From the NCBI GenBank assembly GCA_039000515.1, contig JBCFYV010000100.1, forward strand, positions 27,028,818 to 27,092,817: a stretch of DNA of 64,000 nucleotides, written 5' to 3'. Shown here in pieces: positions 781 through 61,430 of this stretch (position 1 is the stretch's first letter; every line of letters starts with the position of its first letter). A program made the translations under genes and the position numbers. The DNA is from Timema cristinae (Eukaryota; Arthropoda; Insecta; Phasmatodea; Timematidae). The notes beneath the pieces are model-generated. The model was not told where the DNA came from and did no database searches. It saw only the letters and a program-made list of their open reading frames with translations.

Positions 781-1314
781 ATGACCTGGTGGTCCAGAGG
801 TAAGGTGTCACGACTTCTGTACTGAGGGTCCGGAGTTCAATCCTCGGTCCCGACACAGATCTATCTGATTACCAAACCCTTCCTTCACCTCTGATAAGAC
901 GTGTATTTTATTATTATTAGCACCACGTCTTACTACCCGTTCGGTTTATACGCACTTACCCTAATGTGTAATGGTAGGGTGATTGTGAGATGAAATGAAG
1001 GACCTACAGTTTAACGTGGAATCCGAACCACGGAGGCGACCTGGCATTCCACACATTCACAAGATGTCTTGTCAGAGGTGAAGGAAGGGTTTGGAAATCA
1101 GATAAATCTGTGCCGGGACCGAGGATTGAACCCCGGCCGGCAAGACGTGTATTAATCACAACTTGTGAATGTGGGGAATGCCAGGCCTCCACCGTGGTTC
1201 GGATTCCACGTTAAACTGTAGTTCCTTCATTTCATCTCACAATCACCCTACCATTACACATTAGCGTAAGTGCGTGTAACCCGAACGGGTAGTAAGACGC
1301 GGTGCTAATAATAG
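781..1314 (+). mobile_element. SINE type A, interrupted by a second SINE A
   Basis: The outer type A copy has its tRNA-like head at 781-855 (A box TGGTGGTCCAGAGGTAAGG, B box AGTTCAATCC). It is interrupted at 895 and resumes at 1154, running to the common tail and a short TAA tract at 1314. It is flanked by a 12-bp direct repeat ATAGCAAATTTG at 769-780 and 1315-1326, which is a target-site duplication from target-primed reverse transcription. This copy gives a reference structure for type A once the nested copy is removed. Confidence 0.9.
908..1141 (-). mobile_element. SINE type A, 5'-truncated, nested in another SINE A
   Basis: It is inserted in the opposite orientation inside the SINE at 781-1314. 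The 12-bp duplication AAGACGTGTATT is present at 896-907 and 1142-1153. The tail with TAATAATAA starts at 908. The head stops inside the tRNA-like part, so roughly the first 50 bases of the element are missing. That is the expected result of incomplete reverse transcription. Confidence 0.9.
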
Positions 1315-1340
1315 ATAGCAAATTTGTATTTTTAATTTAT

Positions 1341-1565
1341 TTAGCATCGCATCTTACTACCCGTTCAGGCTATGCGCATATGCATTAATAATGCTAATGT
1401 ATTAGGGATGAGGAAGGAAAAATTTCAGAGGCTATCTACCCATATTTGCGTAGAAGGAAAGTGGGAAAACAATTGAGGAAAATCCACCCTCATAAGACCA
1501 GATTGGGATTCGAGTCCTTATAACCTCGAGTGACGCCTTCTAGATCATTCTATCACTGAATCGGG
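1341..1565 (-). mobile_element. SINE type C, diverged
   Basis: Minus-strand copy. A tail variant (CTTACTACCCGTTCAGGCTA) is at about 1350. A TTTGCGTAGAAGGAAAGTGGG body lies at 1445-1470. A B-box complement (GGGATTCGAGTCC) is at about 1505. No target-site duplication could be read. Confidence 0.65.
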
Positions 1566-1927
1566 TACATTTTCTTTAAAAGACTAGTTTTTATTTACCT
1601 GAAGCTCCTGAACACTTTTTATACCCATTTTGATAAATTTACTGCTCTTAATTGAAGGAATGTTTTGCTTTAACGAGGTTTTTAACGCACAATTTCTGAA
1701 TCGACTTACTATTTTAACGGACGGCTTACAAACAAACCAAATATTAAAATATATAGTACACAACATAGAGTCCCCAAGCCAACCGGTTATACCTTTTTTG
1801 GGGCATTTCAGAAATTGAATCTAAAACCCCTAATAAAGTAGATAGACTCATTGTAGCTCACAATATTCAATATTAGAGCATTATTATTTCGTTCAAAATT
1901 ATTGTAATTTTTTAACTGTTCTCTCAA

Positions 1928-2150
1928 CGCAAGGGCTACCCACTTCAGTGTCTCGCAATACACTGGACTACTAATGACGGGGAGATCAGGGTTCAAATCC
2001 CAGTCTTGTGTACTGAGGATGGATTTTCCTAGATGTGTTTCCACTCTCCCTCCAAGCAAATGTGGGTACACTTTCTCTAGATTTAATCACACAAATCCCT
2101 AACACATAAGCGTACGACCCGAATGGATACTATGACGTGGTATTAAAAAA
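1928..2150 (+). mobile_element. SINE type C
   Basis: Plus-strand copy. A B-box-like GGGTTCAAATCCC lies near 1988, followed by the body motif TTTCCACTCTCCCTCCAAGC. A degenerate tail (GACCCGAATGGATACTATGA) follows at about 2116, then an A-rich end. The head lacks a clean A box. Confidence 0.65.
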
Positions 2151-2337
2151 AACCAAAGGTTATTTGCGTTTTGATTTAAGGAACAGGAGTGAGGAGGGCA
2201 TCTTAGATAAAATGTGTCACATCAGGCGTAGAGAGAGAGTATGTACAGTAATAAAACTGCCAGTTAGTAAAGCCAACCAACCTCAATGAATACTGACCCA
2301 GATCTCATTTTTAATATTGACCCAGTTCAATGTGAGT

Positions 2338-2545
2338 CTAACGCCTTAGACCATCTAGCTGCAACTGCGAGTGCTAATCGGACAAAGGCGTCTGACCATC
2401 TGGTCTGATTTGCTGGTGACGCGAGAGGTCCTGGTCTTGAATCCCGGCTTAGTGTACTGAGGTGAGTTTTTTAAAAATTATTTCCCATTCTTTCTCCACG
2501 CAAATTCTGGCTATATTTCCTCTAAATCCTATATCTCGTCCTTAT
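2338..2545 (+). mobile_element. SINE type C-like fragment lacking the tail
   Basis: A tRNA-like head with a B-box-like GGTCTTGAATCCCGG near 2430 is followed by the type C body (TTTCCCATTCTTTCTCCACG). The common tail is not recognisable downstream. It is probably an old copy. Its boundaries are uncertain. Confidence 0.45.
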
Positions 2546-4837
2546 TAATTGTTAATGACAGCTGGATGGAGTAAGCGCGCACAACACACCAAACCAAACT
2601 AGACGTACATATGGGCACCATTCAAATTTGAAACATAAAGATTACGATTTCGACCAGTATCTTTTTTTTTCTCTCTGGGACGTTTGGTTTAAAGCTCTTT
2701 TCAATTCCAAGCCATGTCAAAGAGAGCCACACTTAACTACCTGAAGAACCCACAATACAGTATAAACAGATCACGTGGCAAAAAGACGCAACGCAAGCTG
2801 CGCTGGTTTGTCTCTCACATTCTACTGCAGACAATGTCACTCTCTAGCTACGTTGGGTCTGAGCTACACGCTGAATAAGATAGTAACCTAACGGTTTACA
2901 TACCTAACTGACTTGTTCACAGTTATATACACACGACATGAAGAACTATAGTGCATCGACAAACATATTAGAACAGATTATGAACAGTAAAAGGAGTTTG
3001 AATATACATTTCAAACATATTCTTTACTTTTCGGGTATTAAAATAATCACACGGAAACATACATTTTTCACAAAACTAGTAAATAATAGGCCTGTTTAAA
3101 AAAAAAACATTCAAGTTATCTTTAAAGCTATTGCTTGTAAATCGATTTCTAGTTCTATCGTATATTCTCTTATAACGGTCCTTAGAAGAAAGGGGAGGTG
3201 TTTACAAGTTCCCAAACTCGCCGCGGGACATTCCCGTTTGGGATACGACCTCTGTTGAACTTTCTGGGGTGGTTGCGGACCTTAGCACTGGTTGTGACCC
3301 TTGTTCTTCTGACACAGTGAAAACATCATTCTAATGTAACGTTCCCATAGACGTAGAAAAGTGAGCACCGGTAACGTCTTCTGTCGAATAAATCCAATTC
3401 AGGACTTGTCCGGCAATTGTTGAGTTGTTTTGATCTCATTATCTGGACTCCAGTCGTACTTATTTCCGAAGAAAGAGGTGGCTCTTACCAAAAGACATAA
3501 AGGACAGCAGTTGAGCGTCTTTTGAAAAAAAAAACCAATAAAATATGTAACGGAAATTGTTAGTCCTGTTTGATTAGTGGTTTCAATGAAGAGACCAATA
3601 GGACGTGTTTCACGATTCATAACCGTCATCTTTTATTGATTTGGTCCGAAAAAAAAATTGGTTATTGGATTTAAAGACACTTTAAACTAAAAAATGTGTG
3701 ATGTATGTTTTATAATAAAATACGCAAGTAGCTAAATGATAAATGAAACCTCAAAATAATAAATTTGTTTGCGTTATTAATTTATTGATCTTGAAAACGA
3801 GTGGCTTTTGCGTTGTTTATAATAACAATACAAGCAAATTTTTTCTTCAAAAAGTAACGGAATAAAAACTTCAAAATTATATTTGTGAACATGTTTGTGG
3901 GCAGCTATCGTTAATTCTAGAAGGAGTTTTAAAAACAAGTAGTTTAATGATATTTTAAATTTAGGTTAAGCCTAGTGTGACTACAAAAATGTAACGAAAT
4001 CTTAATAGAAAAGTTATTATTTGTAGACTTTTTAACGCAAGTGTTTTATGTTTCCTTTTTTAAAGGATTAAAAAAAATGATTTATACAAATTTGGAAAAT
4101 CGGTGGTAGCGTGAATTTACAAAAAAAAAAAAAATTAAAAAAAAGGATAAATCAAATCAACTTTGAAAACAGTTTTTGATGTTTTCTTTTTTTCTAGAAG
4201 GATTTCACTAATTACCGGTAGGTCTTACTATAAATTATTTTAGTGAATCTTCTTGTGTGATCCCATTCTACAGGCTTAGTGCTAACAATATATTAGGATT
4301 AATAGTCATTTATGCAATTAATCTATTACAGTGACTATGTTCCAAGGCTTTATGGGATGATATTAGCTTAGGGCTTACTCTAAAGTGGTCTCAGATAATT
4401 AACCTATGGATAATCACATACATGTGATCCGTAAGGGTGAATGGTGACTTGTGGCTGTGGCGTCTGAAAGGAATCAGGAGTCAAGTTGAATCATCGCACG
4501 TGAGAGAAGTTTCAATCGCAAGAAAGAACAAGAGGAAATAAGACGCATCTGAATTGAGGTATGATTACCCCATTAAAACATATTTAAAAAAATTATTTGG
4601 CTATAGTACGCTTGTTGTATGTTAGAAACGTGTATTTTCTTTACTATTCAATATTGCCAAAATGCACTCTTTTAAACTACGTATTGACACATCAAAAATA
4701 CGGACGTACAAATATAAACGCTCATTTTCTCTCCAATACTGAACTAGATTTTGCTTTGCACCGAAATACTGTATTCGTTATTCCGCCATCTTGATCTTGG
4801 TCCTTCTCGATTATATCGTGTTCCTACACATTATATT
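2546..4837. other. AT-rich stretch with no recognised gene
   Basis: Mostly AT-rich unique-looking DNA. The somewhat more GC-rich part at 3180-3500 contains short open frames on the minus strand, but none shows a known domain or convincing splice context. Nothing else was recognised. Confidence 0.4.
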
Positions 4838-5085: not shown

Positions 5086-5255
5086 CACATCAAAAATATT
5101 TACGAAAACATTAAATAGCTTATGTTCTCAATATTAACCATCCCAACGAAGCTTTTATTTGTTGACGAAAAGGCAATGTTTTGTTAGGTTGGGATAGCTT
5201 GTAATTATAAACATGCTCACAAAAATTCTTTGACGCCATCTTGGCACTGTTTTAT

Positions 5256-8029: not shown

Positions 8030-8067
8030 TTGTACTACTATAAAGCCACAGATACACACACAAATGT

Positions 8068-8450
8068 ATATTTATAAAGATAGAACTGGTTTTATTTTTC
8101 AATCGCGTGCGCTCGACCCGGTACAGTCTAGTTTACAGGCGCTATACAATATTGTTGTATGTTGGTTCATTGAGTGCTGGAAAAACTTCTTATTTAGACA
8201 TTTTTATTACTATCGATAGGTTTAGTTAGTAGCAAGTGTGCTAAACCTATCGATGATAATAAAAGTGTAAAAATGAGAAGTTTTCCTAGCACTTATATAA
8301 CCAACATACAATAATATTGTCTAGCGCCTGTAAACTAGTCAGCGTATAACCCGAACGGGTAGTAAGACGCGGTGCTAAATATTATTATTATTATTGTAAA
8401 CTATTCTGTACCGGGTCGAGCGCGCGCGCTTGAAAAATAGAACCTGTTCC
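8068..8450. mobile_element. Long palindromic element interrupted by a SINE tail
   Basis: The left arm is 8072-8222. The right arm, 8238-8449, is its reverse complement with scattered mismatches, around a short central loop (about 8223-8237). Shared blocks include CGACCCGGTACAG, TACAGGCGCTA and AACCTATCGAT. The right arm is longer only because a SINE fragment lies inside it. It has no coding capacity, so it is best called a foldback MITE of unknown family. Confidence 0.85.
8341..8394 (+). mobile_element. SINE 3' tail only, strongly 5'-truncated
   Basis: Only the last 54 bases of the A/B/C tail family are present (GTATAACCCGAACGGGTAGT through an ATT tract). It is flanked by TGTAAACTAGTC (8329-8340) and TGTAAACTATTC (8395-8406), a 12-bp duplication with one mismatch. 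Since the uninterrupted palindrome arm shows what the empty site looked like, this is a well-documented insertion. It shows that the tail alone is enough to be left behind by reverse transcription. Confidence 0.92.
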
Positions 8451-8539: not shown

Positions 8540-8766
8540 GACCGTCCCCTAACGCGCTACTCTCGCAGTAGACTAGACTTCCGAAGACGGGGAGATTGAG
8601 GTTCGAATCTCGATCGGGTGTACTGAGGGTAATTTTTTACAGAATTGTTTTCTACTCTCCACTCACGCAAATGCGGGTGTACTTCCTATAAATATAATCC
8701 CTATAACCATGATCGTAATTAGTACATAGGCATTTAACTCGAACGTGTAGTAAAACGCGATGCTAA
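8540..8766 (+). mobile_element. SINE type B/C
   Basis: The head at 8540-8620 has B-box-like GGTTCGAATCTCG. The body TTTTCTACTCTCCACTCACG follows, and then a mutated tail (AACTCGAACGTGTAGTAAAA). The copy is older than the neighbouring insertions by divergence. Confidence 0.7.
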
Positions 8767-8994: not shown

Positions 8995-9232
8995 GTGTTT
9001 TACTACCCGTTCAGGGTATACGCTTAAGTACTAATTACGCTAGTGGATTATGAATTGAGAAGGTTTAACTTAGAGCAAAAGATCCCGCATTTGCGTGGAA
9101 GGAGAGTGGAAAACTGTTTAGGAAAACCACTCCCGGTTGACCCAACCAAGATTCGAACCTCGATCTCCACGTCCTCGGTAGTTTAGCTCAACACGTCTAA
9201 CGCGTTAGCTAACTAAGCCACCGAGGTGGGTT
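8995..9232 (-). mobile_element. SINE type B
   Basis: Minus-strand copy. The tail (TTTTACTACCCGTTCAGGGT) starts near 9000. The body TTTGCGTGGAAGGAGAGTGG is at about 9090. The tRNA-like head at 9150-9230 carries the complement of GGTTCGAATCT and TGGCTTAGTTAG. No clear target duplication was seen. Confidence 0.8.
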
Positions 9233-9778: not shown

Positions 9779-10421
9779 AAGGTACGCGAGAAAAAAGTGG
9801 TGTTTTTAAATATTTTACAGCAAAACTTTTTTGGACAAAATAAATCAAATAATTCCTTAGTAGAAACAAAGAATTTAATTTTCTTCACGTGGTGATATCA
9901 ATAATTCTTGAATATCTGTAAAAGATGTCCTGGAATGTAATGACCACTTTTTTCTTCATTTAAAAGGTTTCTCATATGTCACATATGCTCATCACGGATA
10001 GTGAGCAACTGTTGATATCACCATGTGAAGAAAATTAAACTTTATGTTTCTACTTGAGCAATATTTTTATTTATTCTGACCAAACCAAACCTGTTTACTA
10101 TGAAAACTGCCAAAATATTGCCTTTTTCTCGAGTCCTCTTTCATCCCACCCGCCTCGGTGGCGTAGTTGGCTAACGCGCTAGTTTCGTGTTGAGACCGAC
10201 TGCTGAGGACGGGGAGATCGAGGTTAGAATCTCAGTCGGGTGAACTGGGAGTGATTTTTCCTAAATGGTTTTCCACTCTCCCTCCACGCAAATGCGGGTT
10301 CACTTACTCTAAATTCAACCTTCCCAATTCCTAATCCATTAGCGTAATTAGTACTTAACCCGAACGGGTAGTAAGACGCGGTGCTAAATAATAATAATCA
10401 TCTTTCATCCCTACCTTAACC
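9779..10421. mobile_element. Foldback TTAA MITE copy, with SINE B inserted
   Basis: The two halves of the palindromic family are at 9779-9960 and 9961-10147. They share GTGATATCAA and its complement TTGATATCACCATGTGAAG, and AATAAATCAAATA-type inner blocks. The right terminus CCCTACCTTAA lies at 10409-10419, beyond a SINE at 10148-10401. The left end is decayed. The element has no coding capacity. Confidence 0.75.
10148..10401 (+). mobile_element. SINE type B, full length
   Basis: Complete copy. The tRNA-like head at 10151-10245 has A box TGGCGTAGTTGGCTAACGCG and a B-box variant GAGGTTAGAATCTC. The body TTTTCCACTCTCCCTCCACG follows, and then the intact tail AACCCGAACGGGTAGTAAGA with AATAATAAT. 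The 10-bp duplication CTTTCATCCC is at 10138-10147 and 10402-10411. It sits in the right terminus of a foldback MITE. It is a good reference copy for type B. Confidence 0.92.
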
Positions 10422-11833: not shown

Positions 11834-12142
11834 TTATTATTATTATAATTATTACTACACCCGTCTTACTACCCGTTCGGGTTATACGCACTACGCTAAT
11901 GTGTAATGGTAGGGTGATTGTGAGATGAAATGGGAAGGACCTACAGTTTAACGTGGAATCTGAACCACGGTGGAGGCCTGGCACTCCACACATTCACAAG
12001 TTGTGATTAATACACGTCTTGTCAGAGGTGAAGGAAGGGTTTGGTAATCAGATAAATCTGTGCCTGGACCGAGGATTGAACCCCGGACCCCATCACAGAA
12101 GTCCGACACCTTACCCCTAGACCCGCCAGGTCACCGACCACC
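11834..12142 (-). mobile_element. SINE type A, full length
   Basis: On the minus strand the head has TGGCGGGTCTAGGGGTAAGG (A-box region, about 12112-12132) and GGGGTTCAATCCTCGGTCC (B-box region). It is followed by the type A body and a tail ending in an ATTATT tract at 11834. The 9-bp duplication TACCTATTA is at 11825-11833 and 12143-12151. Confidence 0.9.
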
Positions 12143-14529: not shown

Positions 14530-14830
14530 ATGAGAAATGAGAGACTAAAAGGAATAGTAAAGGAAGATCCAGTTTAGGACTGGATAGAGAAGGTACGACT
14601 AAGGTGGTATGGAGAAGAATGGAGAGGGGGTAAGGATTCCCAGGAGTATGTGGGATATGGATATGTGGTTAGGATACCGAGAGGAAGACCAAGAGACAGA
14701 TGGCTGAAGGGAATAAGGAGGAATGTGGAGGAGAGAAGACAAGGTGGTGGGAGGAAAGAAGGTTGTGGAGAGGCTTATGTTCCAAACAGACCCAGCCAGT
14801 GGTTGGAAGCTGTTCATGATGATGATGATC
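14530..14830 (+). pseudogene. Non-LTR reverse-transcriptase tail fragment, second family
   Basis: Reading on the plus strand, short conserved pieces appear in order: RMRNERLKGI, VRLRWYGEEW and IPRGRPRDRWLKGIRRNVEE. They are followed by SQWLEAVHDDDD near 14800. The WYG...RGRPR.RW pattern is the usual end of RTE-like or related non-LTR polyproteins. A stop (after KEDPV) and small frameshifts break it. It differs from the RWAGHAARM family at 11009 and 21420. Confidence 0.6.
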
Positions 14831-16224
14831 TCATTGATGATGTGCTGAAACTTATATCCAAACAATTAATGTCAATTAGATATGAAAATATTTCGATGAA
14901 GATGTTTATTGAATCCCAAGAGAAGTGGTGCGTGATAAAAATATATTTAGAAAAACCTTATCCACGAATAGACTTAAAGACAATAACTTAATCAAAACTC
15001 TGCCCTTTCACCACAGAAAGACTACTTTACCAACAAAGGACCTAAACCAAAGTATTTCAAAGGAGGTTAGTTGTCCTCATGGTATTTGGTTTTAAAACAT
15101 GATATCTTAACTATTGAGAAACCTATTTCTTAAATCCAAGATATTGATGGCGGTTTCCATTTATCTTTCCTCTTCAGTTCATGCTGTCGTCCTCGCTATA
15201 TCTCCCTCTCTTCATACCCTCCGAAGGGTTTCGTCCTCGCTATATCTCCCTCTCCTCATACCTCCAAGGGTTCGTCCTTTTTTTTCCCGAATCTGGGGGG
15301 TGGCAAGAGGGGGTAGAGAGGAACCTTAGGCCTTGTAACCGTTGAGTTTTGACGGTCGTCGCCAATATGTGTGTTGAACTAACCTACCCTACACAGCTAT
15401 ACCTTAGATGGAGCATAGCAAGCACTATGGGGCTGGCCTGGCAGCTGCGTCCAATCAGCGCACGCACATAGCACCGGCCGGAAACAATCGAAACTCTGGT
15501 AACAATACTTTATTTAAATGGTTATTGTGTTTAGGTGGCTAAGTTTCATTTTAGATGACGTGCCGCATTTATCTAACACCTATTATTGACTGTGCACAGT
15601 ACGTAATTACATATGTTTAATTACTTTTGCCTTGCATTCGTTCGATAAGTCTAGAACAAATGATACTTTGAGGATGAAGTTTGATAAATGGTTTCCAGTA
15701 GAAAGTTTTTTTTTTATTTTCATCGAATTTGGAGATAAAAATAGGGTGTTTATATTATAAATACGGGTAGTTTCTTTTCAAAGCGTGATTCCTTAAAACA
15801 AAACTAAGTCGAAAATGAACCAGAACAAACGTCTGATGATTAGTTTTTGAAATAGGTGATATCAGAGAGTGGTTAGGCAGTGCATTTATGTGTGTGTATA
15901 TATATATATATTATATATATAAATTATATATATATATGTGTATATATTATATATATTATATATATATATGTATATATATTTTTTCTCGCCAAATAATCTA
16001 AACCCTTTGGTATCCTCCAGGAAATGTGACATCACTAACAAGTGCAATTTCCATTAGAAAGTATCTTTTAGAAAATACAGACTTTTCTTTCTGTCAACAA
16101 TGATAAAGTTTTACTATTATATTAGTATTGTTTAGTAGGTGTTGATAATGTCCATCAAAAGTAACAGCTGCAGATCACATTACCTGACGTATTGATATGT
16201 GAAAGTAGATCCAGTAGTTTGTTT
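14831..16224. other. Unassigned stretch with a local duplication and TA tract
   Basis: A tandem duplication of about 43 bp (TCGTCCTCGCTATATCTCCC begins both copies, at about 15188 and 15231) lies in a pyrimidine-rich patch. A long imperfect TA tract is at 15897-15980. A GC-richer patch at 15400-15490 was not recognised. No gene was seen. Confidence 0.45.
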
Positions 16225-17220: not shown

Positions 17221-17238
17221 TGTACATTATTATTACTA

Positions 17239-17271
<33 letters not shown>

Positions 17272-17312
17272 TTATTAGCACCGCGTCTTACTACCCGTTC
17301 GGGTTATACGCA
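17221..17312 (-). mobile_element. SINE tail fragment with long ATT tract
   Basis: An ATT tract at about 17227-17270 is followed by the complement of the common tail (CTTACTACCCGTTCGGGTTA at 17286). The element stops there, so it is a strongly 5'-truncated copy. It directly abuts a type D SINE. Confidence 0.8.
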
Positions 17313-17500
17313 ATGAACAGTACAGTCGGTAGCGTGTTTGTCTACCGGTCTACTGAGTTAAGGGTCACGGGTTCGATTACCGAAAATGCCGAAATATATA
17401 TAATTGATTGAATGTGGGTTTACCCTTTCACAGTGATTAATTAACGGCTGGGGACTGGTTGTTGTGCCTGTCCTAATCTTAAGTTAGATTATAAATCATA
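17313..17500 (+). mobile_element. SINE type D, tail missing
   Basis: The tRNA-like head at 17325-17390 has ACAGTCGGTAGCGTGTTTGT in the A-box region and CGGGTTCGATTACC as B box. The D body (TTTCACAGTGATTAATTAA) follows. The D/E tail is not present; sequence leaves the family near 17500. Confidence 0.7.
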
Positions 17501-20382: not shown

Positions 20383-20845
20383 TCTACCCATTCGGATTAT
20401 ATTTATTAATTACGCTAATGTGTTTGGGAAAATAAATTTAAATCTATAAAAGATGTAACCCGCCTCGGTGGCGTAGTTGGCTAACGCGCTAGTCGTGTTG
20501 AGCTCGACTGCTGAGGATGGGTAGATCGAGCTTCGAATCTCGGTTGGGTGAACTGGGGGGGGGGGGTGTGTGTTTCTAAATGGTTTTCCACTCTCCTTCC
20601 ACGCAAATGCGGGTTCAATTCCTCTAATTCAACCTTCCCATTTCCTAATACATTAGCGTAATTAGTACTTATAGCGTATAACCCGAACGGGTAGTAAGAC
20701 GTAGTGCTAATATTATTATTATTATTATTATAAAAGATGTACCCACATTAGCGCGGAGGGAGAGCAGAAAACCATTTAGGATAAAAAACTACTCTTAGCA
20801 TACCCGACAGAGAACCCCGATCACCCCGTTATCGACAATACAATT
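20383..20845 (-). mobile_element. SINE type C, split by a SINE B
   Basis: The tail part lies at 20383-20444 (CTACCCATTCGGATTATA), and the body and head resume at 20742-20845 (CACATTAGCGCGGAGGGAGA, then AGAGAACCCCGATC at the B-box position). The B copy inside it is flanked by an exact 13-bp duplication. This fixes the order: the C copy inserted first. Confidence 0.85.
20458..20728 (+). mobile_element. SINE type B, full length, nested
   Basis: Complete head (TGGCGTAGTTGGCTAACGCG; B-box variant GAGCTTCGAATCTCGG), a G-run after GTGAACTGG, the B body, and the intact tail with an ATTATT tract. The 13-bp duplication TATAAAAGATGTA is at 20445-20457 and 20729-20741. It is inserted in opposite orientation to the host C copy. 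Confidence 0.92.
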
Positions 20846-23580: not shown

Positions 23581-23831
23581 TACTTAGCACCGCGTCTTAC
23601 TACCCGTTCGGGTTATATGCTTAAGTACTAATTACGCTAATGGGTTAGGAATTGGGAAGGTTGAATATAGAGGAAGTGAACCCGCATTTTAGTAGGGGAG
23701 GGTGGAAAACCACTTAAGAAAAAAACACCCCCAGTTCACTCGAGTGAGATTCGAACCTTGATCTCCCCGACCTCGGTAGTCTAGCTCAATACGAAACTAG
23801 TTCGTTAGCTAACTATTCCACCGAGGCTGGT
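23581..23831 (-). mobile_element. SINE type B
   Basis: Minus-strand full-length copy. The tail CTTACTACCCGTTCGGGTTA is at about 23596, and the tRNA-like head ends near 23828. It is flanked by GTGATTCTTA (23571-23580) and GTGATTATTA (23832-23841), a 10-bp duplication with one mismatch. Confidence 0.88.
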
Positions 23832-24322: not shown

Positions 24323-24610
24323 ATTATTATTTTTATAATTATTAGCACCACGTCTTACTACCCGTTCGGGCTATACGCATTTAGGCTAATGTGTAATGGT
24401 AGGGTGATACGAGATAAAATAGAGGACCTACAGTTTAACGTGGAATCCGAACCACGGTGGAGGCCTGGCATTCCCCACACTCACAAGATGTCTTGTCAGA
24501 GGTGAAGGAAGGGTTTGGAAATTCAGATAAATCTGTGCTGGGACCGAGGATTGAACCCCGGACCCCGGCACAGAAGTCCGACACTATACCCCTAGAACAC
24601 CGGGTCACCC
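24323..24610 (-). mobile_element. SINE type A, full length
   Basis: The minus-strand head at 24540-24607 has the A and B boxes and is followed by the full type A body and tail. It is flanked by CTCTCCAGTAG (24312-24322) and CTCTTCAGTAG (24611-24621). It forms an inverted pair with the A copy 61 bp to the right. Confidence 0.88.
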
Positions 24611-24671: not shown

Positions 24672-24965
24672 TGGTGACCTGGTGGTCTAGGGGTAAGGTG
24701 TCAGACTTCTGTGCTGGCGGCCGGGGTTCAATCCTCGGTCCCGGCACAGATTTATCTGAATGCCAAACCCTTCTTCAACTCTGACAAGACGTGTATTAAT
24801 CACAACTTGTGAATGTGGGGAATGCTAGGCCTCCACCGTGGTTCGGATCCCACGTTAAACTGTAGGTCCTTCATTTCATCTCACAATCACCCTACCATTA
24901 CACATTAGCGTAAGTGCGTATAACCCGAATGGGTAGTAAGACGCGGTGCTAATAATAATAATATA
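24672..24965 (+). mobile_element. SINE type A, full length
   Basis: A very clean copy: A box TGGTGGTCTAGGGGTAAGG, B box GGGGTTCAATCCTCGGTCC, complete body, tail AACCCGAATGGGTAGTAAGA and a TAA tract. The exact 14-bp duplication ATTAATTCTTGAAT is at 24658-24671 and 24966-24979. It is a reference copy for type A. Confidence 0.93.
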
Positions 24966-26029: not shown

Positions 26030-26500
26030 GCACCACGTCTTTCTACCCGTCCGGATTATAAACCTACATACTAATTGCTCTAATATTTAGGGATGAGAAA
26101 GGTTTATTATATATTATTAGCACCACGTCTTACTAGCCGTTCGGGTTAGCACTCACGCTAATGTGTAATGGTAGGGTGATTTGAGATGAAATGGAGGACC
26201 TACAGTTTAACGTGGAATCCGAACCACGGTGGTGGCCTGGCATTCCCCACATTCACAAGATGTCTTGTCAGAGGTGAAGGAAGGGTTTGATAATTAGATA
26301 AATCCTTGCTGGGACCAAGGGGTGAGAAAGGTTAAATTTAGAAGAAATAAACCTTTATTTGTGTGGATGGAGAGTGGGAAAACCATTTAGTAAAAACCTT
26401 AAGTGCACCCAACCAGAATTGAACCTCGATCTCCCCGTCTTTGGCAGTCCAACACGAGAGTAGCGCGTTAGACCATGCAGCCATCATGGCGGGTTGTCAT
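26030..26500 (-). mobile_element. SINE type C, split by a SINE A
   Basis: The tail part lies at 26030-26093. The body and head resume at 26334-26500, with TTGTGTGGATGGAGAGTGGG and the B-box complement GAATTGAACCTCGATC. The A insertion inside it is marked by an 11-bp duplication. Confidence 0.85.
26105..26322 (-). mobile_element. SINE type A, 5'-truncated, nested
   Basis: It has an ATTATATATTATTAG tail tract, the type A tail and body, and stops at GGGACCAAGG before reaching the B box. The duplication TGAGAAAGGTT is at 26094-26104 and 26323-26333. It inserted in the same orientation as its host C copy. Confidence 0.9.
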
Positions 26501-30092: not shown

Positions 30093-30857
30093 TAGGTGTG
30101 TACCGATGCAGATACCGATGAATCGTTACCGGGCGATTATTATTGCATCGGCACTTAATCGTTATCGCCGATTATTATGTCAATTAATCGTTTTTTAAAG
30201 TAGAATATTAATCAAAATTTTCTGGGTAGGAGCTTAGTGATTAAAATCGCAAAAAAAAAAACACTAATAATTTAAACACACTGTATCTGGGTTGCAGGTT
30301 ATGTAAAGATTACATAAACAGATAAACAAATCTAAGCTTAGACCGTTGATAAAACTAACAATCTAGTTGCGCTAGTCATGTTGAGCTCGACTGCTGAGGA
30401 CGGGGAGATCGAGGTTCGAATCTCAGTCGGGTGAACTGGGGGTGATTTTTCTAAACGGTTTTCCACTCTCCCTTCACGCAAATGCGGGTTCACTTCCTCT
30501 AATTCAACCTTCCCAATTCCTGATCCATTAGCGTAATTAGTACTTAAAGCGTATAACCCGAACGGGTAGTAAGACGGGTGCTAAATAATAATAATAATAA
30601 TAATAATAATATTAATAATAATAATAAAAACAATCTAGTTCCAACATTCACCGCTTAGGCATAAAATATATTTTTGTATACAAACAATCTTTTTGTATTA
30701 ATAACATTAACTGTTATCATTATCTTAAGAATATTTCCCAATAGTTATTAACAAATAATTGATCATCGGGATTAATCGATGTAAATAACCGTAGCATGAA
30801 CAATTATTTTAAACAATTGGTATCAGCAATCGATTTTACTGAATCGGTATGCCTCTA
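30093..30857. mobile_element. hAT-like element with TACCGAT termini
   Basis: The left end is TAGGTGTGTACCGATGC, and the right end read inward is TAGAGGCATACCGATTC. ATCGG/CCGAT words repeat inside both ends. The pattern of GTACCGAT subterminal repeats is common in hAT elements. No convincing 8-bp duplication could be read. The interior is non-coding and contains the SINE at 30369-30628. Confidence 0.55.
30369..30628 (+). mobile_element. SINE type B, 5'-truncated before the A box
   Basis: It starts inside the tRNA-like head (GCGCTAGTCATGTTGAGCTC), so the A box is lost. The B box GAGGTTCGAATCTCAG, body, tail and a long AAT tract are intact. The exact 12-bp duplication AACAATCTAGTT is at 30357-30368 and 30629-30640. 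Confidence 0.92.
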
Positions 30858-35055: not shown

Positions 35056-35724
35056 CTTAAGGTGAGTTGGAAGGAAGGGACGCATTCTGAGGATGTTTTT
35101 AAAGTATTTATAACATTTTTTTATGGAATGAATAAAATAATTATCCAGTAGAAACATAGAGTTAAATTATCTTCACGTGGTGATATCAACAGTTCTTGAA
35201 TATCTATCAAGGGTCTCCTGAAATTTAATTACAACATTTTCTCTTCATTTAAAAAGTTTCTCATCAAATGCTAATATGTTAATGACAAATATTCAAAAAT
35301 TAAACTTTAATGTTTCTAATGAAGTGGTGTTTTATTTATTTTGATAAAAAAAATCTTGCTATAAATTGTTATTATTAACACCACGTCTTGCTACCCATTC
35401 GGGTTATACGCACTTACGCTAATGTGTAATGGTAGGGTGATTGTGAGATGAAATGGAGGACCTACAGTTTAACGTGGGATCCAAACCACGGTGGAGGCCT
35501 AGCATTCCACACATTCACAAGTTGTTATTAATACACGTCTTGTCAGAGGGGAAGGAAGGGTTTGGCAATCAGATAAATCTGTGCCGGGACCGAGGATTGA
35601 ACCCTGGACCCCAACATAGAAGTCTGACACCTTACCCCTAGACCGACAGGTCACTTTCTTGCTATAAAAACTGCAAAAACCCTGATGTTAACTCGCGTTC
35701 CATACACTCCTACCTTCTCGTGTA
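35056..35724. mobile_element. Foldback TTAA MITE copy, split by a SINE A
   Basis: The left end CTTAAGGTGAG is at 35056. The arm blocks GTGGTGATATCAACAGTTCT and TTGAATATCTATCAAGGG are at 35178-35215, and a decayed right arm runs to 35724 (CTCCTACCTT). A SINE inserted within TCTTGCTATAAA of the right arm. Confidence 0.75.
35366..35656 (-). mobile_element. SINE type A, full length
   Basis: Minus-strand copy with an intact head, body and tail (CTTGCTACCCATTCGGGTTA). The exact 12-bp duplication TCTTGCTATAAA is at 35354-35365 and 35657-35668. The continuing MITE sequence TATAAAAACTGCAAAAACC after the insertion confirms the empty site. Confidence 0.93.
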
Positions 35725-40980: not shown

Positions 40981-41218
40981 AATAAACCACTTCGGTGGCC
41001 ACGTGGTCCAGTGCGCTAATCTCGTGTTGGATTAGACTGCGGAAGACTGGGAGATCGTAGTTTGATCTTACTCGGGTGCACTGAAAGGTTTTATCTTAAA
41101 AAAAAAACGCAAATTCAGGTACACTTCCTCTAAATTAAGCCTTCTTAATCCCTAGCTCATTAGTGTAATTAATACATACGCATATAACCTGAACGGGTAG
41201 TAAGACATGATGATAAAA
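40981..41218 (+). mobile_element. SINE type C
   Basis: The head has TGGCCACGTGGTCCAGTGCG (A-box region). The B-box area is mutated (GTAGTTTGATCTTAC). The body is shortened by an A run, and the tail is AACCTGAACGGGTAGTAAGA. This copy shows the type C A-box best. Confidence 0.75.
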
Positions 41219-42856: not shown

Positions 42857-43590
42857 GACTCTGGTTTGGTTATTTCTTTCTCCATAGCAGAGTGGTAAAG
42901 GAGACCAACTTTGTCTTTTGGGGACTCTGGTTTGAATATTTCTTTCTCATGGCAGAGTGGTAAAGGAGACCAACTCTGTGTCTTGGAGACTCTGGTTTGA
43001 ATATTTCTTTCTCCATGGCAGAGTGGTAAAGGAGACCAACTTTGTGTTTTGGGGACTCTGGTTTGAATATTTCTTTCTCATGGCAGAGTGGTAAAGGAGA
43101 CCAACTTTGTCTTTTGGGGACTCTGGTTTGAATATTTCTTTCTTCATGACAGAGTGGTAAAGGAGACCAACTTTGTGTTTTGGGGACTCTGGTTTGAATA
43201 TTTCTTTCTCCATGGCAGAGTGGTAAAGGAGACCAACTCTGTGTCTTGGAGACTCTGGTTTGAATATTTCTTTCTCCATGGCAGAGTGGTAAAGGAGACC
43301 AACTTTGTGTTTTGGGGACTCTGGTTTGAATATTTCTTTTTCCATGGCAGAGTGGTAAAGGAGACCAACTCTGTGTCTTGGAGACTCTGGTTTGAATATT
43401 TCTTTCTCCATGGCAGAGTGGTAAAGGAGACCAACTTTGTGTTTTGGGGACTCTGGTTTGAATATTTCTTTTCTCCATGGCAGAGTGGTAAAGGAGAACA
43501 ACTTTGTGTTTTGGGGACTCTGGTTTGAATATTTCTTTCTCCATGGCAGAGTGGTAAAGGAGACCAACTTTTTGCTTTGGGACTCTGCTT
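42857..43590 (+). repeat. 66-bp tandem array of tRNA-like units, about 11 copies
   Basis: Each 66-bp unit holds TGGCAGAGTGG, a full match to the pol III A-box pattern. After a 33-bp gap comes GGTTTGAATAT, an 8-of-11 match to the B box. Between them CCAA and TTGG can pair around a 9-base loop, and CAGAGT can pair with ACTCTG. Two monomer versions (CTTTGTGTTTTGGGG and CTCTGTGTCTTGGAG) alternate over part of the array, giving a 132-bp higher-order repeat. Because 66 is divisible by three, long frames stay open on both strands; these are not taken as genes. Confidence 0.9.
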
Positions 43591-43977
43591 TCATTCTTCT
43601 CTGTCAAATTCAATTCAAAGGTTCAGTCATATCCATAAATGGCAGCATTTGTTTGTTTTCTTTGGCGGAGAACTTCAATTGAGTATTTGGGAACAGAGAG
43701 AGGTGGGAGTGTCAGTGGGTCCTACAATGGCAGTGGCAAGAAGTTCACTGGAGTGCTTGATTAACTTGGAAGGTCAGAGTTCATATCCCATCCTGGAATT
43801 CTATGTTGCTTTCCATGGTTTCTCCATGGAAATGCTGGCCCACTTCCTCATATCCTACCTTCTCATCAGCCAGACCAGGGGAATACTGTACAAGGCGTTA
43901 AGCCAGCAAAATAATATATTGCTGGTTACCGTGAAGTCATGATTCAGATCTCAACCAGGTTTATTGGGGTTGGTTCT
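43591..43977 (+). other. Region next to the 66-bp array with a diverged tRNA-like unit
   Basis: At about 43728-43800 AATGGCAGTGGCAAGAAGTT and GTCAGAGTTCATATCCCATC stand at A- and B-box spacing. A TCCATGGTTTCTCCATGGAA palindrome follows. A frame at 43577-43942 remains open but shows no domain. It could be the source element of the array. Confidence 0.4.
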
Positions 43978-43987: not shown

Positions 43988-44272
43988 GGTAGGTGACCTG
44001 GCGGTATAGGGATAAGGCATCGGAATTCTGTGCTGGGGTCCAGGTTCAATCCCTGGTCCCAGCACATATTTAACTGATTGCCAAACCCTTCCTTCGCCTC
44101 TGACAAGACGTGTGTATTAGTCTCAACTTGTGAATGTGTGGAATACCAGGCCTCCACCGTGGTTCGGATTCCACGTTAAACTCTAGGTCCTCCATTTCAT
44201 CTCACAATCACCCTACCATTACACATTAGCGTAAGTGCGTATAACCAGAACGGGTAGTAGGACACGGTGCTG

Positions 44273-47749: not shown

Positions 47750-48000
47750 CCCGCTCCGGTGACTACATGGTTTAAGGCTTCACTCTCGAAATAGATTTTA
47801 CAGTCGATGACGGGGAGGTTAGAGTTTGAATTTAGGTAATGTATAATGAGGGTGGTTTTTCCAAAATGGTGTTCCATTCTATCTCCACACTAGTGCGGGT
47901 ACACTTCCCCTAAATTGAACCTTACTTATCCTTAACACATTAGAATAATTAATAGATTGGCGCACAGCCCGAATGGGTAGTAAGACGTGGTGCTAGAAAA
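47750..48000 (+). mobile_element. SINE type C
   Basis: The head CGGTGACTACATGGTTTAAG and B-box variant GTTAGAGTTTGAATTTAGG are followed by the body TTCCATTCTATCTCCACACT and the tail AGCCCGAATGGGTAGTAAGA. Confidence 0.75.
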
Positions 48001-51389: not shown

Positions 51390-51880
51390 TTAATCGCCGC
51401 GTTTTACTACCCATTCGGCTTATACGCTTATATACTAATTACGACAATTGTTTAGGGATGACAAATTGATTTTAGAGGAAGTGTACCAGCATTTACACGA
51501 AGCGAGAGTGGGAAACCATTTAGGAAAAATAACCCTCATTACAACCAACCGGGATCAAACAATGTTCTCCCCGTCATCGTCATTGGCAGTATAGTCCATT
51601 GCGAGAGTAACGCCCTAATTTATTGTAACCATCCAGTAGAACGAATTTAAAAACATTACTATATGGGGTTGAAATGAGGTAGGTACAATTTAGAGAATAT
51701 ATAGCCCACATACATGTGAAAGGAGCATGGGAAACCATATAACAAAAAAAAAAAAAATCTCAGTACACTCAACTTGGATTCGAACACCAGTCTCTCCGTC
51801 ACCTGCAGTCCAGTTTATTTCAAGAGTGACGCCTTAAAGCATACGAACACTGTTGTACTGACCCGATACCCAATAACTGC
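51390..51880 (-). mobile_element. Two SINE type C copies in tandem
   Basis: The first, at 51390-51645, has the tail TTTTACTACCCATTCGGCTT, the body and a head complement (CGGGATCAAACAATG). The second, at 51660-51870, has a body (ACATGTGAAAGGAGCATGGG) and the clean B-box complement TGGATTCGAACACCAG but no tail. Both read on the minus strand. Confidence 0.65.
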
Positions 51881-54846: not shown

Positions 54847-55102
54847 CCAGCCTCGGAGGCGTAGTTGGCTATCACGCTAGTTTTGTGTTGAGCTAGACCG
54901 CCGAGGACGGGGAGATTGAGGCTCGAATATCACTCAGGTCCACTGGGGATGGTTTTTCCTGAATGTTTTTCCACTTTACCTCTACGCAAATGCGGGCTTA
55001 CTTCTTTTATACTCAACCTTCCCAATTCTTAGCCCATTAGCGTAATTAGTACTTAAGCGTAAAGACCGAACGGGTAGTAAGACGCGGTGCTATATATCCT
55101 AG
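54847..55102 (+). mobile_element. SINE type B, full length
   Basis: The head has GGAGGCGTAGTTGGCTATCA and a B box with a mutation (GAGGCTCGAATATC). The body and a slightly mutated tail (AGACCGAACGGGTAGTAAGA) follow. The exact 9-bp duplication TAGGCAACA is at 54838-54846 and 55103-55111. Confidence 0.88.
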
Positions 55103-55257
55103 TAGGCAACATCGTAAAGTAGATATTTTGCTCCATTATTTCTGACACATGTGTGAATAAAGCTTTAAATAGCACACCGATGAAGCCCCACCAAAACACG
55201 ATTGAATCTCAACAGATTTTCTTATGTTTCACGCTGGTCCTGAATTAAGTAGGTAAG

Positions 55258-55632
55258 CCTTAAGGTGAGGCAGAAGGGTGCGCGAGTAATTTTACAGTTT
55301 TTATAGAATTGAAAGTTTTTGGCCAAAATAAATCAAATATTTCTCCAGTAGCAACATATAGTTTAGTTTTCTGCACATGCTAATATCAACAGATCTTGAA
55401 TATCTGTCAAGAGTGTCCTGGAATTTTGTCAAAACTTTTTCTCTTTATTTCAAAAGTTTTGACAAAATTCCAGGACACCCTTGACAGATATTCAAGATCT
55501 GTCGATATTAGCATGTGCAGAAAACTAAACTTTATGTTGCTACTGGAGAAATATTCGATTTATTTTGGCCAAAAACTTTCAATTCTATAAAAACTGTAAA
55601 AACACTTGCTATCCCTTCTACCTCACCTTAAG
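55258..55632. mobile_element. Foldback TTAA MITE, near-perfect reference copy
   Basis: CCTTAAGGTGAGGCAGAAGG at the left pairs with the end CCTCACCTTAAG at the right, and pairing continues through almost the whole 375 bp. The centre is AAAACTTTTTCTC. TTAA flanks both ends. Arm blocks such as TCTTGAATATCTGTCAAGAG and TTTTGTCAAAACTTTT and their complements are nearly unmutated, so this is the youngest copy in the window. Confidence 0.9.
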
Positions 55633-56618: not shown

Positions 56619-56621
56619 TGG

Positions 56622-57470: not shown

Positions 57471-57473
57471 GTT

Positions 57474-57758
57474 TGGTGGACGCATGGCTTAAGGCGGTAC
57501 TCTTGCGATAAAATAGACTTCCAATGACGAGGAGAACGTGGTTTGACCCCAGTTAAGTGTACAGAGGGTGGTTTTTCCCTAGATCATTTCCCACTCACTC
57601 TCTCTCTCTCTTTCTCCATCCACGCAAATGGGGTACACTTAGTCTAAATTCAACCTTCCCACGTTAAACTGTAGGTCCTCCATTTCATCTCACAATCACC
57701 CTACCACTACACATTAGCGTAAGTGCATATAACCCGAACGGGTAGTAAGACGTGGTGC

Positions 57759-57811
<53 letters not shown>

Positions 57812-57812
57812 T
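57474..57812 (+). mobile_element. Chimeric SINE: type C head and body with type A 3' half
   Basis: The 5' part (CGCATGGCTTAAGGCGGTAC, ACGTGGTTTGACCCC, CTCTCTCTCT insertion, CCACGCAAATGGGG) is type C up to CAACCTTCCC at about 57660. It continues directly as the type A 3' half: ACGTTAAACTGTAGGTCCTC, then CACATTAGCGTAAGTGCATA. The common tail and a long AAT tract follow. No C remainder follows, so this is not a simple insertion of an A copy into a C copy. Confidence 0.85.
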
Positions 57813-59035
57813 AAATATAAAATTAATCTATAATTATAAGTTTTAATAAATCATGGTTCTAGATATATTACTTAACAACAAGTTAATTCTCACTTTATTT
57901 TCTTTCTTAGCAATAATAACATATTATTTTGAATATATTATTGGTATTAACAAGATGATGTGTTTGTTTTTCTGAGGAAAACATACTTAAGGGTAGTTTA
58001 CTCAAAAGATATTTTTGAAAATTATCTTCAAAGTCATAATACACAATATGAAAAAGTGTGTACAATTGTGTCGTACAATTTATTTTAAATACTACTAGCC
58101 TATACTTTGTCTTTGCAGCATCGACCAATAAATTTGGCTGCAATCTGGTTCAATTTAATTCTCTTAAGAGTTTGGATTTTTGTTGTAAGGTGCCAAAACC
58201 ACAATAAAACAATTGAAAAGTATTTGTGTATTTTTGGGTTAGCTAGACTTGTATTGTTTTTAAATAGGCACAGGTAATGGAAGGTAATGTTGGCTCATTG
58301 AATAAATACTTTTTTTAATAATCTATGCACTCCAAAGGATATTATTTTATCTCTTTTATTTTCGCAATTAATCTGGGTGTACACTAAATAATTAAAATAA
58401 TAAACTTTATATATATTCAAATCATTAATTTAAATTAAATTTTGTATGGATACAAGAGGTTTCAATTCCAGATTTTAACTTTTTTTGTAGTATTTAATCA
58501 TATTAGCTCTGAAAATTAATATAAAAGAAGTAAATTGCCATAAAATAAAAAATTCTAAATAAAGCTTAGTTTGCCATTCTATCTATCGCTCAACAAAAAG
58601 CTATTTCACAAAAACTATATTTTCTACCTTTATTATTTTTTCGATAGAGTTTTTTTTTTGTGAAGTCCTAATATTACTTGGTCCCCCATTTTGCTAGCTT
58701 ACCTTATACCTGTTGAATTTTAAGGAAAAAAATTCCTTTTCCAACAAATGTCTGTCTTAGAATAAAGGAATCATTCTTACAAGATACTTTCTCTAAAGGG
58801 TTCCAAGGAAACCTCTTTTAGAAATCTAAGAATAGACTCTTCTTTTCGATCTAGGATCCTTATTTTAAAGACATATTACACAGTTTTGTTAGCGGAATAT
58901 TTTTTTCTTTCACAGTTGGTAAATGTGGAAAATCCATATCAGACTAAACCAAATAAACTACAGAGGAAGAAGATCAGCATGAAGGACACCATTTGTTATT
59001 TTCCCCCCCCTTTTTTTTTTTTTTTTTTTGCTGTA
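57813..59035. other. AT-rich stretch ending in a T run
   Basis: No element was recognised. A C-run and a long T-run at 59003-59029 end in TTGCTGTAG, which could serve as a splice acceptor for the candidate exon that follows. Confidence 0.35.
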
Positions 59036-61430
59036 GTTGCTAATGTTTGAGTTTTAGGAGCCTGTCAGGGTTGTTTTTGTTGAGCTAAGGGTAGTTTTCA
59101 GGTAAAGAACCTTTATGGGGGTGAACACAACATGTTGCCACTGCTTTTTGTCAGCTGCAGAATGTGTGCCTTTCTACGAGTTTCTTCTTTCAGTTGTCGA
59201 AAAGCAGCCGTTTCCTAGCGGGTCAAAAATGGAGAGAATTCACAGCCGCCCAGAGCAACCTGTTTGGAGGGAAATAACAGGTATGTTTTTATTTCATATC
59301 TTTCATATCGTCACTAATTACTTATTGTTTTATCCTCGGATACATACTTTGATAAGAGTTGCCGGTAATTTGGAATTAAATAACATCTGCTGGTATCACG
59401 TTTTTTTTTATTAGCTACCAACAACATTTTGGTGTTTTTTCAGAGGAAGAATTTTCTAAGTAATGAATGATAATGTGCTTTGTCTTATTTTTAATGAAAA
59501 CTAAATTTATCAAGGTGTCGTATATCAAAGGTTATGTCAAATCCTGTAAGGTTTTTAAAAAACGTATAACCCGAACGGATAAATAAGACGCGATACTGAA
59601 AAAAAAAGATTTTTGAATTTACGGAGGAAGCATTAATGTGTATGAATATTTTTAATTTAAAACCACGTAAATTAGAAAATGTAACACTGTTTACAACTTT
59701 CATTAGTTATGGTAAATAATATCGATGCGTCGTAACTTTGTATAGGTTACGTGAAAGTTGTAACACTTAAAAAAAAAAATTGCTGTTGTCGAAAGCTTCC
59801 AGAAGCGTTAATTTATCCTAGGAACTAGTTGGGTTCATATTTATATTTTAGAATGTTCCCTAGGGGATTCATTAACTACGAAGTCCTTATAAAGCTTAAG
59901 TTCACATAAGGAGTAGATAATTAAGCAATTCTTACAATAGTTAAGTTAAAATGAGGAGTTGATAATTATATACGAAGTTATTATAAAGCCAAATTAACCT
60001 CTGGAATAGCTACGAGGCTAAACTAGGGATAAGTAACTTCAAAATATGTATAAAGCTGATTAGGGAAATAAAGGAATAATTACTACGAAGTTATTTTAAA
60101 GTTAAATTCACTTAGGGAGTTGTTATAAAGCTAGATTACCTTGAGTTAAAATATACGAAATCCTTATCAAGCTAAGTTCACTTAAGAAAATATTACGAAA
60201 TTCTTAAGAAACTTTCATCTAAGGCGTGCTATAGAAGTTATAGACCCAAGCTAAGCTAGGTAATAGATATATAAAGTATTGACTTGACAATTGTTCGCCT
60301 CTGATGCACTGTTTTCCTCGAAAATGACAATTGTTTTGAGCATATAATTTGTAAATCTGTTTTTGTTATTTAGTCTAAATGGAGTTTTATTACAAATGTT
60401 GATAAAAAAAATATGTGTAATCAACTACAGATAAATTATGGCATTAATCAGTTGATTGATTATTTATTTGAAAAGTATACTTTTATTTTACTTTCTCATA
60501 TATAGAGAATTAATGTAAGTGCGAAAAAAAATCGATCTAAAAATTATGTTGAATCTTGATGACCTGGTGGTCTAGGGGTAAGGTAAGGTGTCATGTCAGA
60601 CTTCTGTGCTGGGGGTTCGAGTTCAATTCAGTTCCGGCACAGATTTATCTGATTTCCAAACCCTTTCTTAACCTCTGACAAGACGTGTATTAATCACAAA
60701 CTTGTGAATGTGTGGAATGCCAGGCCTCCACCGTGGTTCGGATTCCACGTTAAACTGTAGGTCCTCTATTTCATCTCACAATCACCCTACCATTACTCTT
60801 TAGCGTACGTGCGTATAACCCGAATGGGTAGTAAGACGTGGTGATAATAAAAATAAATAATAATAATAAAACTTACTTTTCCTTTTATTATTACTATACC
60901 ACCATTTTTTTTTTACGAATGAACATACTGACAGCTAGAAAAAATCACTAGATATACTTTCACGTATTCGTTCATACGTCAAGTCCCCTCTCACTATTTA
61001 TAGATAGTATCAATAGTTATAAAATAACATTAATAGTTTAGTAACATCATAGCAATAATTAGCGCAAAAAAAAATGTTTGTATTTTATTTAAAAAAAGGT
61101 CCATTCGTAAGACAATCCCACTTTAGTAACAGGTAAGATGTTAAATGTAATTTATTATAACAAACCAGTGGCTTATATTTGTTTAGCCAAATAAAACATC
61201 ATATGGGTTGAGATGCCTCTGAGCCCCATTAAAAAAATTATCTTGTCCTATACAATCAACAAATATTTTAAATATTATATAAATATAATCAGGAAAAAAG
61301 TTAAGCCTATTATTTACATTAATGCTATTTTAAATTAATTTACTCTTTTTCAGGCCAAGACTACGTGTAAGAGCTCATCTTAGTGTTACCACCTTTCCTA
61401 AAATAAAATAAAGATTGACTTTGTATAGAA
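59036..61430 (+). CDS. Weak candidate for a small two-exon gene
   Basis: A polypyrimidine tract and TAG precede 59036. A frame starts at ATG 59115 with an in-frame stop just upstream and runs 55 codons to ATAACAG at 59280. There a strong donor (CAG followed by GTATGT) stands. An acceptor (CTCTTTTTCAG) ends at 61353; joining there adds four residues (QDYV) and a TAA. Tandem AATAAA-like poly(A) signals lie at about 61400-61412. The 2,073-bp intron would hold a SINE A. The protein (Cys and Pro containing, about 60 residues) matches nothing I recognise. It could equally be the last exons of a gene starting elsewhere, or chance. Confidence 0.25.
59560..59605 (+). mobile_element. SINE tail fragment
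   Basis: ACGTATAACCCGAACGGATA followed by AATAAGACGCGATACTGAAA, without any body. Strongly 5'-truncated. Confidence 0.7.
60558..60868 (+). mobile_element. SINE type A
   Basis: The head GACCTGGTGGTCTAGGGGTA contains a small internal duplication (AAGGTAAGGTGTCATGTCAG). The B box is mutated (GAGTTCAATTCAGTTCC). The body and tail AACCCGAATGGGTAGTAAGA with an AAATAATAATAA tract are intact. No clear target duplication was seen. Confidence 0.85.

What the first reader, a model, noticed from the sequence alone, without database searches (positions are those of the whole stretch)
781..60868. One 3' tail carried by at least three different tRNA-like SINE bodies
Types A (781, 24672, 43988), B (10148, 20458, 54847) and C (40981, 47750) have different heads and bodies but share the last 50 or so bases, centred on AACCCGAACGGGTAGTAAGA and ending in (TAA)n. 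About 30 copies lie in 64 kb. In known SINE biology a shared tail is the part recognised by a partner LINE's reverse transcriptase. This suggests repeated capture of one tail by unrelated tRNA-like heads. The LINE partner is not in this window.
Basis: partly seen in the sequence, partly recalled or inferred. Interest (0 to 1): 0.75.

Follow-up and report, generated by a model that had tools for sequence, protein, structure and literature searches.

The report
Two stick-insect SINE families, one tail
Two unrelated families of short jumping elements in a stick-insect genome end in the same short tail, a known kind of sharing; copies of little more than the tail also occur, and a partial search found no helper element carrying that tail.

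Summary
The shared tail is real: 25 motifs in the window, 124,508 in the genome, which is a Timema stick insect by COX1. Types A and B are unrelated in body (z 1.3) but their consensus sequences are identical over the last 34 nt before the (TAA)n repeat. Type C is not a third family: its consensus aligns to B end to end (214 of 241). So two tRNA-headed SINE families share one tail. The LINE step is not supported as stated: in 46 fetched places with the tail but foreign bases beside it, and in the LINE 3' ends read, no LINE carries this tail; the search was partial. The one LINE seen ending in (TAA)n is I-like and otherwise different. Several SINEs sharing one tail is known from salmonids and moths, so this is a new member of a known kind.

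The parts
24673..24949 (+). SINE A, full length (tRNA-Pro-like head, body, shared tail)
   Evidence: tail at 24922
11858..12135 (-). SINE A, full length
35379..35654 (-). SINE A, full length
43992..44270 (+). SINE A, full length
60560..60843 (+). SINE A, full length
24345..24609 (-). SINE A, full length
782..1305 (.). Inverted, interleaved SINE A pieces (5' part on + from 782, tails at 928- and 1278+)
26119..26320 (-). 5'-truncated SINE A nested in an old C copy (26318-26483); a further tail motif, apparently of C, is at 26038
2..241 (-). SINE B, full length
10149..10384 (+). SINE B, full length
20459..20707 (+). SINE B, full length
8997..9230 (-). SINE B, full length
23587..23830 (-). SINE B, full length
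54847..55090 (+). SINE B, full length
30369..30583 (+). SINE B, 5'-truncated, flanked by AACAATCTAGTT duplications
40987..41214 (+). SINE C = old subfamily of B
47750..47994 (+). SINE C = old subfamily of B
51393..51617 (-). SINE C = old subfamily of B
8549..8764 (+). SINE C = old subfamily of B
1343..1492 (-). SINE C, partial
57472..57811 (+). Old C 5' part joined to a young A 3' part (100 nt); nested insertion or chimera unresolved
8338..8395 (+). Insertion of little more than the tail, flanked by GTAAACTA duplications
17227..17313 (-). Insertion of little more than the tail with long (TAA)n; imperfect duplication TGTACTGTTCA / TGTACAGTTCA read by eye
   Evidence: the exact-match test found only 5 nt

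Best explanation
Two independent tRNA-derived SINE families live in this Timema genome: A (tRNA-Pro-like head) and B with its older subfamily C (tRNA-Leu-like head in C). Both end in one 3' module: a predicted hairpin of which the last 34 nt are identical, followed in A mostly by (TAA)n. The module was already present in old C copies, so family A probably acquired it later from the B/C lineage, or from the same source, by template switching. RNA of either family, and stretches of little more than the tail, are inserted by target-primed reverse transcription, giving direct target-site duplications. Shown: shared tail, unrelated A and B bodies, B/C homology, copy-identity order, and tail-only insertions with duplications. 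Inferred: that the module is what a LINE reverse transcriptase recognises, that A took it from B/C, and who the partner is. The LINE seen here that ends in (TAA)n, I-like, is the leading candidate, through the repeat and not through the tail sequence.
For: Motif count and shuffles; genome count 62,578 + 61,930 at up to 1 mismatch, reversed-pattern control 0; A and B identical over 34 nt, with CATTAGCGTAA also in both just upstream (read by eye in the consensus); A body against B body z 1.3; C on B end to end; median identity to consensus A 91.6% (n=10), B 88.2% (n=8), C 75.2% (n=13) for pieces of 100 nt or more in a body-only search; A head against tRNA-Pro z 7.1 and 8.9; flanking duplications in 14 of 28 loci against 1 of 756 swapped pairs; A and B tails fold better than shuffles (z -2.25 and -2.85; 4 and 1 of 200 shuffles as good); the I-like LINE ends in (TAA)n.
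Against: No LINE with this tail was found, though the search was partial. The minimal tail does not fold better than shuffles (z -0.76). C copies mostly lack (TAA)n: 1 of 14 have it and 7 of 14 have A-runs by automatic assignment, so a (TAA)n-reading partner may not have served C; B has it in only 3 of 11. Consensus sequences were built partly from window copies, so identities are slightly high. Head origin is not firm: ARAGORN at default finds no tRNA in either consensus and with relaxed settings names A's head Arg(tct); Rfam's tRNA model gives 18.7 bits, below its cut-off of 29, for an A copy and nothing for a B copy; A also scores z 2.3 to 4.6 against tRNA-Leu.
Confidence: 0.72

Rival explanations
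1. Stringent-type pair: a LINE of this genome has the same 3' tail, A and B each took the tail from it, and its reverse transcriptase reads the hairpin. The LINE is rare, diverged, extinct or was missed.
For: This is the established pattern for many SINE/LINE pairs (passages of PMC3747384 and PMC4176376). The A and B tails fold as a hairpin next to the repeat.
Against: 46 places with the tail core but foreign bases beside it were fetched; their upstream DNA (19,801 nt) gives no protein-level match to eight LINE frames in hand. The A-type junction with foreign upstream occurs 3 times and the B-type twice in the genome (these 5 were not fetched). Only part of the matches was fetched: 12 of 42, 20 of 1318, 14 of 24.
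Confidence: 0.35
2. Relaxed recognition: the I-like LINE mobilises any RNA ending in UAA repeats. The shared tail is inherited baggage or serves RNA stability, and is not itself recognised.
For: The I-like LINE ends in (TAA)n. A paper title seen only in a reference list says UAA repeats are essential for precise initiation in the Drosophila I factor.
Against: The 34 nt stay identical between A and B and 33 of 34 between B and C while heads differ. Unrelated RNAs with (TAA)n were not looked for. Many B and C copies do not end in (TAA)n.
Confidence: 0.3
3. A, B and C are one diverged family.
For: C and B align end to end.
Against: A body against B body z 1.3 and different best tRNA matches.
Confidence: 0.03
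4. The tail-only copies are simply extreme 5' truncations of SINE cDNA.
For: 5' truncation is usual for target-primed reverse transcription (recalled; also a passage). Other truncated copies exist (window 30369, 26119; L001, L004). Starts at the loop with duplications also occur (L111, L112, L114, L117), and L090 starts about 10 nt upstream by an imperfect repeat.
Against: In the set, which allowed starts up to 7 nt before GCGTATAACC, the 9 loci with 8 or more exact bases all start 0 to 3 nt before it. Foreign sequence at two junctions further upstream is rare (3 and 2 places). The patterns differ in length and strictness, so the excess is only rough; the loci were selected by a pattern that forces such a start.
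Confidence: 0.7

Closest known systems
Salmonid SINEs SlmI, HpaI and OS-SINE1 sharing the RSg-1 LINE tail (seen as a passage in PMC3272025, citing Matveev et al. 2007, itself not read)
   Same: Three SINE families share one tail of about 70 bp; the cited title says SINEs can take up tails of other SINEs.
   Different: There the tail matches a known LINE; here no LINE with the tail was found. Different host.
Helicoverpa HaSE1/HaSE3 with HaRTE1.1 (PMC3272025, passages)
   Same: Different heads (tRNA and 5S rRNA), shared 3' end, template switching proposed, 5'-truncated copies with duplications.
   Different: There body and tail are shared and the partner is an RTE LINE ending in TGA repeats; here only the tail is shared.
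Drosophila I factor and I-clade LINEs
   Same: 3' end of TAA repeats (passage in PMC3747384); the I-like LINE of this genome has an RNase H domain and (TAA)n.
   Different: The 3' UTR sequence and hairpin of the I-like LINE do not match the SINE tail (compared by eye).

Membership tests
tRNA-derived SINE | 5' head related to a tRNA | tested here: met
   A head against this genome's tRNA-Pro z 7.1 and 8.9; C head against tRNA-Leu exon 1 z 5.4 to 6.6. B alone is weaker (z 2.3 to 5.3) but is homologous to C. Against: Rfam 18.7 bits for an A copy, below cut-off, none for B; ARAGORN none at default, Arg for A when relaxed.
tRNA-derived SINE | Pol III transcription | not testable with these tools
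   No expression data
tRNA-derived SINE | Short, dispersed, high copy | tested here: met
   Consensus 277 and 241 nt; 124,508 tail motifs in 1.29 Gb
tRNA-derived SINE | Target-site duplications | tested here: met
   Controlled test only on loci without a SINE body at the tail: 14 of 28 against 1 of 756; examples for longer copies read by eye
SINE/LINE pair of the stringent type | A LINE in the genome with the same 3' tail | tested here: not met
   the search was partial, not exhaustive
SINE/LINE pair of the stringent type | 3' stem-loop | tested here: inconclusive
   Predicted; z -2.25 (A), -2.85 (B), -0.76 (minimal tail); compensatory change not tested
Partner in the I clade | (TAA)n end | tested here: inconclusive
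   A 15 of 20, B 3 of 11, C 1 of 14 copies with (TAA)n; the I-like LINE ends in (TAA)n

The most novel reading that the evidence does not exclude
The tail itself behaves as a mobile unit: a hairpin of about 34 nt plus (TAA)n is inserted on its own, from a discrete small RNA released at the hairpin base rather than by chance truncation. That would make it one of the smallest retroposed units, and the means by which new SINE bodies acquire the tail.
Probability: 0.12. Interest if true: 0.75.

Novelty: new member of a known kind. Interest (0 to 1): 0.42.

Why it matters
It gives two abundant SINE families of a stick-insect genome with a clear age order and one shared tail, a clean case for studying how tails pass between SINEs. 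The insertions of little more than the tail offer a natural readout of what a LINE reverse transcriptase needs at the 3' end. The partner that was not found asks whether a tail can outlive its LINE, or whether (TAA)n alone suffices.

Tried and rejected
A third head at 17286 ('type D') was considered and rejected: no SINE body lies upstream, and an imperfect duplication flanks the tail. A LINE 3' UTR joined to the tail was sought by five exclusion patterns. From three of them 46 places were fetched; the 3 and 2 places were not. Fetched sets: 12 of 42 (4 were SINEs); 20 of 1318, chosen by eye from the 100 listed because their upstream did not look like A or B, a few such being left out (2 of the 20 were SINEs; L087/L088 are one duplicated place); 14 of 24 (4 were A copies with altered hairpins, three of them one duplicated place; 5 had a flanking duplication; 5 were unresolved, L108/L109 being one duplicated place). 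Their upstream DNA was then compared with the held LINEs: tblastn with eight LINE frames gave none; the 40 blastn rows fall, by position, on SINE copies lying in L020, L021, L052, L054, L066 and L132, save two short ones (L090 with L038, 79 nt; L094 with L019, 46 nt). LINE 3' ends: 60 loci from the RVT_1 and RNase_H searches were scanned for the motif, and 4 hold it: L020 (a full B), L029 (an old C remnant), L054 (a tail-only copy shortly after an I-like LINE end, with its own duplication) and L068 (a tandem array directly after an I-like LINE end). The 3' ends of 19 of those loci were read in print, and 5 loci of a 929-aa family. The searches score only 150 of 17,343, 1,571 and 4,654 candidates, so other LINE families went unseen. 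The copy at 57731 as a template-switch chimera stays unresolved: no duplication was seen and the two parts differ in age. A 17-mer hit in a viral contig shows no likeness beyond about the word and is taken as chance. Default ARAGORN and window-wide Rfam found no tRNA. Four sequence strings searched in the paper library gave one unrelated influenza paper.
Full report
Organism. The window lies in a 1.29-Gb assembly of 7,605 contigs. Its mitochondrial COX1 is 97% identical to Timema and at most 89% to the other 119 listed hits, so the genome is a Timema stick insect; the species was not determined.

The observation. The tail motif occurs 25 times in the window at up to 3 mismatches and never in 100 shuffles. 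At up to 1 mismatch it occurs 62,578 + 61,930 times in the genome, with 0 for the reversed pattern. Using bodies only, so that the tail cannot bias the count, 35 pieces in the window match A, B or C; some are parts of one broken copy.

Two families, not three. Consensus sequences of A (277 nt, 10 full copies) and B (241 nt, 11 full copies) were made from held copies. Their last 34 nt are identical, and an 11-nt block (CATTAGCGTAA) stands just upstream in both (read by eye). Without the tail, A against B scores z 1.3 above shuffles; the heads alone score z 4.0, as two tRNA-like heads may. Five C copies match B's body at z 23 to 39 and A's at z -0.8 to 1.8. A C consensus from 9 copies aligns with B end to end: 214 of 241 identical, the first 55 nt at 42 of 55 and the last 34 at 33 of 34. 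C is therefore an older subfamily of B.

Ages. Median identity to the consensus for pieces of 100 nt or more in the window is 91.6% for A (n=10), 88.2% for B (n=8) and 75.2% for C (n=13). The consensus sequences include window copies, so the values are slightly high, but the order is clear. The tail was thus in use in C before A spread.

Heads. Five tRNA-Pro genes were located by a pattern recalled from general knowledge, fetched and all five confirmed by ARAGORN. A's head matches at z 7.1 and 8.9 for the two genes tested; B and C score 2.0 to 2.9. Fifteen places match a recalled tRNA-Leu pattern. Three were fetched; ARAGORN calls none in the 115-116 nt held, and they appear to hold an intron, so they are tRNA-Leu by recall. 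C's head matches their first part at z 5.4 to 6.6, B's at 2.3 to 5.3, A's at 2.3 to 4.6. Against the Pro reading, ARAGORN with relaxed settings folds A's head as Arg(tct).

Tail-only insertions. Copies with an exact tail core but foreign bases directly upstream are rare: 42 in the genome, of which 12 were fetched and 8 have no SINE body next to the tail. A looser pattern gave 1,318, many of the listed ones plainly SINEs with small gaps; from the 100 listed I fetched 20 that looked foreign, and 2 proved to be SINEs. In a test of 28 such loci, including the window's two and L054, 14 have an exact flanking repeat of 9 nt or more, 6 have 7 or 8, and 8 have only 3 to 6; swapped pairs reach 9 in 1 of 756. 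All 14 repeats end 0 to 4 nt from GCGTATAACC; for the loci the search pattern forces a start there. One imperfect case, L090, starts about 10 nt upstream. Some further insertions begin at the loop (L111, L112, L114, L117). These are real insertions of little more than the tail. Whether they are truncations or copies of a small RNA is open.

Structure. Folded with the repeat, A's and B's tails close on themselves next to (TAA)n (z -2.25 and -2.85), while the minimal 49-nt tail is not better than shuffles (z -0.76). C folds alike, without a shuffle control. Compensatory change was not tested, so the structure is a prediction.

The LINE partner. The RNase H search found an I-like LINE whose 3' end is a different hairpin followed by (TAA)n. 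Its product matches proteins, many with endonuclease, reverse transcriptase and RNase H domains, at 42 to 55% identity among the 120 listed; the clade name is my reading. Other LINEs read, Jockey-like by recall and a 929-aa family, end otherwise. Of the 60 LINE loci, four hold the motif: a full B, an old C remnant, a tail-only copy shortly after an I-like LINE end (L054), and a tandem array directly after one (L068). The last two could be read as a hint of a link, or as plain neighbours. The 46 fetched upstream stretches give no protein-level match to eight LINE frames, and their DNA matches are, by position, to SINE copies save two short ones. The A junction with foreign upstream occurs 3 times, the B junction twice, and the 3' half with a foreign 5' half 24 times. 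The search is partial: only the best 150 candidates per family are scored. So a tail-bearing LINE is rare, diverged, gone or missed, or (TAA)n alone is enough.

3' repeats. In one search, by automatic assignment of a non-random set, (TAA)n follows 15 of 20 A, 3 of 11 B and 1 of 14 C copies; C copies have A-runs in 7 of 14, and the one C with (TAA)n is the mixed copy at 57731. A change of partner between C and A would fit, but decay of old repeats was not excluded.

Comparison. In passages of PMC3272025, three salmonid SINE families share a 70-bp tail with a LINE, and two moth SINEs share a 3' end with template switching proposed. Passages of PMC3747384 and PMC4176376 describe stringent and relaxed recognition and stem-loops; PMC4176376 names pairs in the CR1, Tad1 and RTE clades, not I. 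Passages of PMC9191728 and PMC2881922 were also seen. This case belongs to the same kind. Four strings of these sequences were not found in the held library apart from one unrelated match (related searches); the library lacks most subscription journals, and repeat databases were not searched.

Noticed in passing
L068 2691-3363: A 42-bp unit repeated 16 times contains the SINE tail and directly follows the (TAA)n end of an I-like LINE: a satellite apparently made from the tail.
   Followed up: partly
L110, around 228-340: A tail-only copy appears to be inserted in the (TAA)n of a SINE A copy.
   Followed up: no
window 55380-55510: A long near-perfect palindrome gives 64 Rfam matches, nearly all microRNA families and on both strands, none at its family's cut-off.
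   Followed up: partly
L081, L104, window 8348, window 20680: Some copies end in (ATT)n in place of (TAA)n.
   Followed up: no
L016 and L129: Two different LINE families are both followed by the same sequence, GTGACCCACCCTGGGGAACC.
   Followed up: no
genome, e.g. C1:1653166-1654175: The COX1 search lists 55 matches, many of them fragments on other contigs and some with TAA or TAG stops, as expected of mitochondrial DNA copies.
   Followed up: no
window 42870-43622: A repetitive stretch keeps several frames open on both strands.
   Followed up: no
window 14578-14991: An open frame looks by recall like an RTE-type LINE C-terminus ending in GAT repeats; Pfam gives no match.
   Followed up: no
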